Shown piece after piece: positions 53,815 through 55,936 of a stretch of DNA of 64,000 nt. Every line of letters starts with the position of its first letter. The first letter of the stretch is position 1. Under the pieces are notes generated by a model. That model searched no databases. It had not been told where the DNA came from and saw nothing but the letters and a program-made list of their open reading frames with translations. The stretch spans positions 62,001 to 126,000 of the forward strand of contig RSEE01000066.1 of the NCBI GenBank assembly GCA_003971905.1, in the 5' to 3' direction. Origin of the DNA: Moniliella sp. 'wahieum'. Its lineage: Eukaryota; Basidiomycota; Moniliellomycetes; Moniliellales; Moniliellaceae. The translations under genes were made by a program, and so were the position numbers.

Positions 53815-55936
53815 TCAAGGCAAGGGAGACGACCAACTTACTAGTAACGAAGCAATCGCATTATTGGGTCGCGAGAAAGACACTAGCCTGTTGCCGATGC
53901 ACACTAGACGGCCATTCATCTCAATCTTGGGCCAGGTCTTGTAGTTTTCAACGATAAAGTCGTCCGTCTTGAACCCATCAATCGACTCGACCGCCCGGGC
54001 AAACTTGAGGGTTGGGAAGGGGTAGGGGTCGCGCTTGAGCTGCTCCTTGAGCGGCTCGACATGGTCCAGGTACACATGCGCATCGCCCAGGACGATCGTC
54101 AGCTCGCGCGCGCGCAGGCCGGTGACCTGGGCCAGCATGTGGGTCAGCAGCGCATACGAGGCAATGTTGAACGGCACCCCGAGCCCCAGATCGGCGGAGC
54201 GTTGGTACATTTGGCAGCTTAGCTCGCCCGTGCCCGGACCGTTGGGGTGCGAAACAAAGAACTGGGCCAGCACATGGCACGGAGGCAGCGCCATCTTGGC
54301 GTTCTGCGCCGGGTTCCACGCCGACAGAAGGATCCGCCGGTCGGTCGGGTTGGACTTGATCGTCTCCACCACCTGGGCCAACTGGTCCCCCCCTTGCCCG
54401 TGTAATCCGCATCGGCCGACGTGTAGGGCGCATCAAAGTGGCGCCATTGAAAGCCATAGACCGGACCCAAATCTCCTCGCGGTAGGGCAGTCCCCGCTTG
54501 CGCAAAAATTCTTCGCTGCCATTGCCATCCCAAATGTGCACCCGCGCTGGGCCAACTTGGTCGCATCCGTCGACCCTTCCACGAACCACAGCAGCTCCTC
54601 CAGCACGCCCCGGAAAAACACACGCTTCGTGGTCAGCAGCGGCAAGCTGCCGTGGGACAGATCAAACTTCATGGGCGTCGGCGCAAACAGGGCGAGCGTT
54701 CCATGGCCCGTCCGATCCGCCCGCTTTTCGCCGACATCCAAGACGGCTTGGACGAGGGCTTGGTACTGCCGCTCCCCCGGGTTGGGCACGTCGGGATTCG
54801 CGCCGAGCACACGGCCATTGAGGCAGTGCAGCACCGCATCGCGCAGCCCAGCCGTGCGCAACGTGCCGGCAATCAACGGCTTGGACAAACCAATGGGAGC
54901 ATTGCCCTTGGCCAGCTTGATTTGGTCCTTGTTCGGCTCGCCTGGCGTTTGGGCCATTCCATCTTGCGCACTAAACAGCGAACCAATCGTAGGTTCGTCG
55001 AAACATTTGTGCGCATACGACAGAATGGCGATCGCACCCGCATCCACAGCAAAACGTTGGCCGAGCCAAAGCGGGAGACCAAGCCAGCGCGCAATAAAGC
55101 ACCTGTAGATCACGCCCAATCAGCTTGCACGAAAACGACGAAAGAAAAGCACCGAGGCAGAGAACGTACCGGTTAAAGTGCCCATGAGCCACGATCAAAA
55201 TGTCGGCAACGCGATGGCCCTTCTTGTTAGCATCCAGCTGGACGCCATCATCTTGGATGTACCCATGAGCGGCGGCACGCTGCAACATACGAATCTGGTG
55301 AATGATGCTGTCGATCCGAGCTGTCACTGCCTCCACTTTCGCCGGGCAAGGAGGGGTCATCGGGGTCGTCCGGGGTGCCCTCGTGCCAGATGTCCCAGTT
55401 GGCATAGCCAGGCACCGCACGTGCCTCGGCCGGCGTCTTGCCCTCGAACAGACCATAGTCCCATTCCGACACTCTTGGCGCACCTCGGCCGGAGGAATCT
55501 TGTCGCGCGCCGATTGGGGCAGATGCTCCAAAAGCAGTTGCAGAGTGTGCTGCGAACGCCCTCGGGGCGAAACAAACACGTACCCAAGGTGGTGGGGGGT
55601 GAGAAGAGCAGAGACATTGTCCTCCGGCCGCGGATCGTCGCCGACCACGTACGGGCCGAGGTGCCGAACCAGTTCCTCGCCGTGGGGAGTCAGGCGCAAG
55701 TTGGTGCGACCAGTGTGCTGCCCCGATAGCGACCACGCCGTCTCACCGTGCCGAAGGAGAATGACGCGCGGCATGGGCGCGCCCGCGGGCAGCTTGCGGC
55801 ACGCCTCCGTGCCAATTTCCGGATGAGCGGCCAGCAGCTCCTCGGCCGTCGGTGCATGGCCATCTTTACGGAGAGGAATGAACTCCTGATCAGGAGGGTA
55901 GACGGGCGCCGATGCGCGCGAGTAATACGTAGCCAT
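53815..55936 (-). CDS. Fusion: SHB17-type histidine phosphatase – thymidylate synthase
   Basis: One reading unit of about 684 residues. Start [16 protein letters not shown] at 55936. N-terminal half: phosphoglycerate-mutase-fold phosphatase of the sedoheptulose-1,7-bisphosphatase (SHB17) type, with [12 protein letters not shown] (catalytic His codon 55748-55750), [36 protein letters not shown] (catalytic Glu), [12 protein letters not shown] and [10 protein letters not shown] (second His). A 67-bp intron (55103-55169) joins it to [37 protein letters not shown], the end of the phosphatase fold. The same frame then continues without a stop through about 70 residues into thymidylate synthase: [81 protein letters not shown] (nucleophile Cys codon 54277-54279), [37 protein letters not shown]. 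Frame changes occur in each half (near 55470, 55340, 54480 and 54390) but not in the 54991-54775 junction. An ATG at 54957 could start a separate synthase, but no stop precedes it. The C-terminus is a little longer than usual. Confidence 0.82.

What the first reader, a model, noticed from the sequence alone, without database searches (positions are those of the whole stretch)
53815..55936. SHB17-type sugar bisphosphatase fused to thymidylate synthase
A histidine phosphatase with all catalytic landmarks ([21 protein letters not shown]) and a complete-looking C-terminus ([18 protein letters not shown]) continues in the same frame, with no stop for over 200 bp, into a thymidylate synthase carrying its Cys and folate/dUMP motifs. 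The junction 54991-54775 is flanked by conserved blocks of both enzymes in one frame, so hiding a stop would need two compensating base errors. SHB17 feeds ribose-5-phosphate synthesis (riboneogenesis) and thymidylate synthase makes dTMP, so the pairing makes metabolic sense. Known synthase fusions are with dihydrofolate reductase in plants and protists; I do not know of this one in fungi.
Basis: partly seen in the sequence, partly recalled or inferred. Interest (0 to 1): 0.88.

Follow-up and report, generated by a model that had tools for sequence, protein, structure and literature searches.

The report
Sugar phosphatase welded to thymidylate synthase
In smut fungi, Malassezia yeasts and their relatives, one gene encodes a predicted sugar-bisphosphate phosphatase and thymidylate synthase in a single reading frame; the copy in this window has a broken frame, likely from assembly errors, but an intact copy lies elsewhere in the same genome, and the pairing would put a ribose-supply enzyme and a DNA-precursor enzyme under one control.

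Summary
The fusion is real, but this window alone could not prove it. The window copy (53904-55936, minus strand) lies in pieces over all three minus frames with one predicted intron; only the junction is open in one frame. The same 69.5-Mb genome holds four thymidylate synthase loci, each just behind a histidine-phosphatase domain. One, on C35, reads cleanly as a two-exon, 658-residue gene with no stop and no methionine between the two enzymes. Of the 120 best homologues listed, 44 carry both domains; the 19 with species names are Ustilaginomycotina, from three classes. The phosphatase half matches yeast SHB17 best among solved structures and keeps its catalytic residues in 26 of 26 fused proteins. 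Free-standing versions listed come almost only from other fungi; trees allow one origin. Seven literature searches on the pairing showed no description of it. Most likely it is a bifunctional sedoheptulose-1,7-bisphosphatase/thymidylate synthase. Both activities, and any cross-talk, are untested.

The parts
55170..55936 (-). Exon 1 region: start codon, short N-terminal extension and most of the SHB17-type histidine phosphatase ([21 protein letters not shown]); frame-disrupted as assembled
   Evidence: PF00300 9e-13; aligns to C35 residues 2-258; start and splice site read
55103..55169 (-). Predicted 67-bp GT-AG intron, directly after AHGHFNR
   Evidence: Same place as the 77-bp intron of the intact C35 copy; four unnamed homologous gene models (P0122, P0124, P0128, P0161) end exactly at the equivalent residue. 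No RNA evidence
54997..55102 (-). Start of exon 2: C-terminal block of the phosphatase ([16 protein letters not shown])
   Evidence: ORF 55119-54433; alignment to the SHB17 C-terminal block
54775..54996 (-). Inter-enzyme linker, 74 codons, open in one frame
   Evidence: 222 nt in C35, C75 and C66, no gaps; C35-C66 mismatches by codon position 20/16/43
53904..54774 (-). Thymidylate synthase half (DRTGHGT, PPCH cysteine, [18 protein letters not shown]); frame-disrupted as assembled
   Evidence: PF00303 4.6e-22 and 1.1e-61 in two pieces; whole-genome hit C66:115914-116768, 8.5e-88; end estimated by comparison with C35

Best explanation
The window holds a frame-disrupted copy of a gene whose intact sister copy encodes, in one reading frame with one predicted intron, an SHB17-type sugar bisphosphatase followed by thymidylate synthase, and its product would be a single chain that likely performs both reactions. 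Shown from sequence: the order of the halves, the open junction, the intact C35 copy, and the same architecture across Ustilaginomycotina. Inferred: the N-terminal half dephosphorylates sedoheptulose-1,7-bisphosphate to sedoheptulose-7-phosphate, feeding ribose-5-phosphate synthesis, while the C-terminal half methylates dUMP to dTMP. The two reactions share no intermediate, so substrate channelling is not expected; the likely gain is fixed stoichiometry and shared expression and location of a ribose-supply step and the dTMP step, with the chain held as a dimer by the synthase half. Also inferred: the frame breaks of the window copy are mostly consensus errors of this assembly rather than gene death.
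For: 4 of 4 synthase loci in the genome carry a phosphatase domain directly upstream on the same strand. C35 is a clean two-exon, 658-aa gene; from the phosphatase EP motif to the synthase DRTG motif it has no stop and no methionine, so no separate AUG start for the synthase; the same is true of 12 of 26 fused proteins. 44 of the 120 best homologues listed have both domains; 19 of the 44 have species names, 14 species looked up (13 other genera and Malassezia furfur), all Ustilaginomycotina; the five other Malassezia by genus. Best solved match of the phosphatase half is SHB17; R12, H13, R69, E99, H176 and H244 equivalents kept in 26 of 26; synthase PPCH, RSxDxGLGxPFN and GDAHVY in 26 of 26. 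A free-standing agaricomycete SHB17 finds in this genome only the four fused loci and one weak hit of another branch. AlphaFold2 of the Kalmanozyma protein: two confident halves (mean pLDDT 91.9) and a 13-residue low-confidence linker. Frame breaks differ between C66 and C93, non-coding flanks show a gap excess too, and transaldolase appears frame-broken in all three copies found.
Against: No RNA or protein evidence. No activity was measured; substrate is inferred by similarity. R181 equivalent is lost in 2 of 26 (two unnamed Malassezia-like rows) and the synthase DRR motif and C-terminal end are missing in 1 and 3 of 26. 14 of 26 fused proteins do have a methionine between the motifs. The synthase tree as first found does not unite the fused proteins, and the phosphatase-tree support is 87, not starred. 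pTM 0.62 leaves the relative placement of the halves open. On the frame breaks: single-base gaps between C66 and C93 are not enriched in runs of one base (22 of 45, against 46% of bases in such runs), and their mismatches are less biased to third positions (10/7/21) than in C35/C75 (6/1/46); both fit decay as well as error.
Confidence: 0.8

Rival explanations
1. The phosphatase half has drifted to another substrate (for example fructose-1,6-bisphosphate or a nucleotide) or is now a regulatory or structural domain; only the synthase half matters.
For: Histidine phosphatases are promiscuous (general knowledge). Bacterial acid-phosphatase models also match, below their cut-offs. The phosphatase branch of Malassezia is long and 2 of 26 rows lack the R181 equivalent.
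Against: SHB17 is the best match among solved structures. The catalytic residues and the C-terminal DAGGIxxLSYxH block are conserved. No other SHB17 was found in this genome.
Confidence: 0.15
2. The two enzymes are made separately in the cell, from an internal promoter, an internal start or by cleavage in the flexible linker, and the shared frame is incidental.
For: The linker is flexible in the model. 14 of 26 fused proteins have a methionine between the end of the phosphatase and DRTG.
Against: C35 and 11 other fused proteins have no methionine there. The linker keeps an open frame over about 75% identical copies, with no gaps and mismatches mostly at third positions. The frame is kept over three fungal classes.
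Confidence: 0.08
3. For the window copy only: C66 and C93 are decaying duplicates, and the C35/C75 pair alone keeps the function.
For: 14 gaps in 1,937 exon bases between C66 and C93 against 2 in 1,975 for C35/C75. Weaker third-position bias and no enrichment of single-base gaps in runs of one base.
Against: Exon mismatches between C66 and C93 (33 of 1,937, 1.7%) are still well under the flanks (3.8%), and gaps are in excess in the non-coding flanks too: 60 in 3,757 bases against 17 in 1,604 for C35/C75, despite fewer flank substitutions. Transaldolase appears frame-broken in all three copies found, and of eight contigs with the RNA polymerase Rpb2_6 domain only one has it in full without a stop (introns may account for part).
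Confidence: 0.3
4. The fusion is an artefact of joined gene models.
For: Many homologues are automatic predictions. P0123 of Ceraceosorus is listed as a phosphatase alone.
Against: The DNA of C35 was read directly: one exon carries the phosphatase C-terminus, linker and whole synthase with no stop. P0123 ends before the second catalytic histidine, so it is a cut-off model.
Confidence: 0.02

Closest known systems
SHB17 (YKR043C), sedoheptulose-1,7-bisphosphatase of S. cerevisiae (PDB 3f3k, 3lg2, 3ll4, 3oi7)
   Same: Histidine phosphatase core, catalytic residues and the C-terminal DAGGIxxLSYxH..EP block
   Different: SHB17 stands alone; here a linker and thymidylate synthase follow. Position 24 is His instead of Tyr, as it also is in the 15 free-standing relatives compared
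Thymidylate synthase (ThyA type), e.g. Cryptococcus neoformans 2aaz
   Different: Carries an N-terminal sugar-phosphatase half
Bifunctional DHFR-thymidylate synthase of protists and plants
   Same: Thymidylate synthase at the C-terminus behind another enzyme
   Different: Partner is DHFR, which recycles the synthase's own product; here the partner shares no intermediate, and DHFR of this genome lies on other contigs
Hal3-thymidylate synthase of Schizosaccharomyces
   Same: A fungal C-terminal thymidylate synthase fused to an unrelated enzyme (passage in PMC6695811; P0093)
   Different: Partner is a phosphopantothenoylcysteine decarboxylase (PF02441); an Ascomycete, so by inference an independent event

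Membership tests
SHB17-type sedoheptulose-1,7-bisphosphatase | Histidine phosphatase branch 1 core with catalytic RHG, Arg, Glu and second His | tested here: met
   PF00300 in the window; R12, H13, R69, E99, H176 equivalents in 26 of 26 fused proteins incl. C35. The roles of the numbered residues are recalled
SHB17-type sedoheptulose-1,7-bisphosphatase | Closest sequence relative with known structure is SHB17, including its C-terminal block | tested here: met
   3f3k 2.2e-33; next other family 2.4e-20
SHB17-type sedoheptulose-1,7-bisphosphatase | Phosphatase fold by structure comparison | tested here: inconclusive
   The listed structure matches were filled by the synthase half; no separate model of the phosphatase half was made
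SHB17-type sedoheptulose-1,7-bisphosphatase | Hydrolysis of sedoheptulose-1,7-bisphosphate | not testable with these tools
   Needs an enzyme assay
Thymidylate synthase (ThyA) | PF00303 domain with catalytic Cys (PPCH), RSxDxGLGxPFN and GDAHVY | tested here: met
   motifs in 26 of 26
Thymidylate synthase (ThyA) | Synthase activity | not testable with these tools
   Needs complementation or an assay
Single bifunctional polypeptide | Both domains in one open frame with no stop | tested here: met
   C35, 658 aa, one predicted intron. The window copy itself does not meet it as assembled
Single bifunctional polypeptide | One transcript and one protein | not testable with these tools
   No RNA or protein data
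Bifunctional DHFR-TS | DHFR domain (PF00186) fused to the synthase | tested here: not met
   Window pieces show only PF00300 and PF00303; PF00186 found only on C55 and C7
Hal3-TS fusion | N-terminal flavoprotein domain (PF02441) | tested here: not met
   No such match in the window pieces; the 44 two-domain homologues list PF00300 and PF00303 only

The most novel reading that the evidence does not exclude
A subphylum-wide, obligate bifunctional enzyme in which a riboneogenesis step and dTMP synthesis are physically and regulatorily coupled, so that sugar-phosphate state tunes thymidylate supply (or dUMP/folate state tunes ribose supply) through the shared chain, with no free-standing copy of either enzyme left in these fungi.
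Probability: 0.25. Interest if true: 0.82.

Novelty: new variant of a known kind. Interest (0 to 1): 0.62.

Why it matters
Thymidylate synthase is a core DNA-precursor enzyme, and the fusion partners known to me or seen here are DHFR and, in fission yeast, Hal3. A further partner, from carbohydrate metabolism and with no shared intermediate, kept across smuts, Exobasidium-type fungi and Malassezia, suggests selection for joint dosage or control of ribose and dTMP supply. It makes that link directly testable in tractable yeasts, offers a clade marker for Ustilaginomycotina, and means that the synthase of these fungi carries a domain that the free-standing human enzyme lacks.

Tried and rejected
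Rejected: a fusion unique to this fungus. Considered and rejected: a second, free-standing SHB17 at C15; inspection shows a short match in a different histidine-phosphatase gene. P0123 (Ceraceosorus, Ustilaginomycotina; 192 aa) is listed as a phosphatase alone, but ends before the second catalytic His, so I read it as a cut-off model; taken at face value it counts against a universal fusion. P0247 and P0297 are listed as synthases alone but begin inside the phosphatase C-terminus.

Led nowhere: a PDB search with the long linker gave no match at E up to 10. The AlphaFold2 model of P0006 left the linker at low confidence. The structure-search lists filled with the synthase half, so the phosphatase half is not covered by fold comparison. 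The species of the window's genome could not be named; C35 is a long branch in both trees. Single-base gaps are not enriched in runs of one base, so the usual mark of long-read error is missing.

Literature: seven full-text searches on the pairing. Searches returned 0 papers each; two searches returned 18 each, judged from listing and abstract starts, with one of them (PMC6695811) read in passages. on fungal gene fusions listed 10 of 724, not read further. Searches served background. The library holds open-licence PMC papers only.

Full report
OBSERVATION. The stretch was read on both strands. On the minus strand the pieces give His_Phos_1 (9e-13) and then Thymidylat_synt (4.6e-22 for the first part, 1.1e-61 for the second). 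One frame change is explained by a predicted intron of 67 bp (55169-55103) at the place of the C35 intron; the others have no such explanation. The junction is open: 54996-54775 lies in a 228-residue ORF that starts in the phosphatase C-terminal block and runs into the synthase.

OTHER COPIES. The window is G000:C66:62001-126000 of a 69.5-Mb, 223-contig assembly. PF00303 finds synthase loci on C75, C35, C66 and C93, and PF00300 finds a phosphatase domain just upstream on the same strand at each of the four. C35 is clean: exon 1, a 77-bp GT-AG intron, exon 2, 658 residues. C75 is 95% identical DNA with one frame change in exon 1. C66 and C93 form a second pair, 94% identical to each other and about 75% identical to C35 in the gene. 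C35 has no in-frame methionine from the phosphatase EP motif to the synthase DRTG motif, so the synthase has no AUG start of its own before its active-site region. The linker is 222 nt in C35, C75 and C66 without gaps, and C35-C66 mismatches favour the third position (20/16/43).

RELATIVES. The C35 protein found 4,410 proteins at E<=0.001 among 7,986 scored; of the 120 listed, 44 carry both domains. Nineteen of the 44 have species names: Tilletiaria, Kalmanozyma, Sympodiomycopsis, Sporisorium, Pseudozyma, Melanopsichium, Exobasidium, Violaceomyces, Parajaminaea, Testicularia, Tilletiopsis, Thecaphora, Tilletia and six Malassezia. The thirteen single species and M. furfur were looked up and all fourteen are Ustilaginomycotina, in the classes Ustilaginomycetes, Exobasidiomycetes and Malasseziomycetes; the five other Malassezia are placed by genus. 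U. maydis itself is not named in the list. Of the 44, 25 were used with C35 (26 rows) in the trees and residue counts; 19 were left out, many of them shorter or unnamed models, M. pachydermatis P0041 among them. Low-similarity fusions elsewhere could be missed, as only the best candidates were scored and listed.

FREE-STANDING FORMS. With the Kalmanozyma phosphatase half as query, which excludes full-length fusions by length, the named rows among 120 listed of 5,958 are Agaricomycotina, Pucciniomycotina (Rhodotorula, Rhodosporidiobolus) and Ascomycota (placed from memory), save P0123 from Ceraceosorus, which is cut short. With the synthase half, the 120 listed of 7,998 include no named Ustilaginomycotina without a phosphatase domain. 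Four unnamed models stop exactly at HGH[FYH]xR (P0122, P0124, P0128, P0161), and P0006, P0247 and P0297 begin inside the phosphatase C-terminus, as expected if gene finders broke a fused gene at the intron seen here. In this genome a free-standing agaricomycete SHB17 finds only the four fused loci plus a weak hit at C15, which belongs to another histidine-phosphatase gene. DHFR is elsewhere.

TREES. Phosphatase halves of fused proteins form one side of a branch against free-standing ones (support 87, not starred). In the quick synthase tree they need two changes, but the tree that holds them together is 9.08 log units better, p-AU 0.737. One origin is allowed and favoured, not proven.

THE BROKEN FRAME. 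C66 and C93 differ by 14 gaps in 1,937 aligned exon bases; C35 and C75 by 2 in 1,975. In the flanks measured, the C66/C93 pair has 60 gaps in 3,757 bases against 17 in 1,604 for C35/C75, although its flank substitutions are fewer (3.8% against 5.8%); the flanks are not the same stretches and may hold some coding DNA. A gap excess outside the gene is not explained by loss of this gene's function. Transaldolase appears frame-broken in all three copies found, at different places. Against error: mismatches between C66 and C93 by codon position are 10/7/21 against 6/1/46 for C35/C75, and single-base gaps are not enriched in runs of one base (22 of 45; 46% of bases lie in such runs). I put most weight on consensus error; some decay of the C66/C93 pair is not excluded.

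LITERATURE. Full-text searches pairing thymidylate synthase with SHB17, histidine phosphatase, phosphoglycerate mutase, sedoheptulose or Ustilaginomycotina gave no paper. With Ustilago maydis or Malassezia, 18 papers each were seen as listing and abstract starts and none announces the fusion there. The S. pombe Hal3-synthase precedent was read in a passage of PMC6695811 and met in passages of PMC9604783; Molero et al. 2013 was seen only as a reference entry. Databases already carry the two-domain architecture, often under the name thymidylate synthase, so the protein is recorded but, in what was searched, not described.

VERDICT. A real, clade-wide fusion gene and a new partner for thymidylate synthase. 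Ordinary chemistry is expected in each half; why they were joined is the open and testable question.

Noticed in passing
58893-59942 (+): A transaldolase gene (PF00923, 9.1e-61) lies 3 kb from the fused gene, and likewise on C93; transaldolase and SHB17 act in the same branch of the pentose phosphate pathway. Conserved patches of the window copy read out of frame and return to frame. The C5 transaldolase is not near a fused gene.
   Followed up: partly
G000 C35/C75 versus C66/C93: The genome carries two pairs of copies, about 95% identical DNA within a pair and about 75% between pairs, in 69.5 Mb; flanking genes differ between the pairs. This fits a hybrid or a mix of two related fungi.
   Followed up: partly
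54775-54910 (-), also C35, C75 and P0006: The linker of this lineage is longer than in other fused proteins (EP to DRTG 93 residues against 36-64) and holds a conserved island (..GTLRTxGLRDAVxHCLxGRVxGANPD..) with no match among solved structures and low model confidence.
   Followed up: partly
P0043, P0048, P0049: Unnamed metagenomic proteins with two thymidylate synthase units in tandem, the first apparently degenerate.
   Followed up: no
P0001 and P0051: P0001 (labelled Brassica cretica) and P0051 hold repeated synthase segments that look like assembly or gene-model artefacts; P0001 tops the list for that reason, not because it is a fusion.
   Followed up: no
48073-50046 (-): RhoGAP protein with the end of a divergent CRAL/TRIO domain at its start.
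   Followed up: no
30-1988 (+): ORF with a phosphotransferase enzyme family domain (APH, PF01636, 2.4e-43); probably an ordinary fungal kinase-fold enzyme.
   Followed up: no
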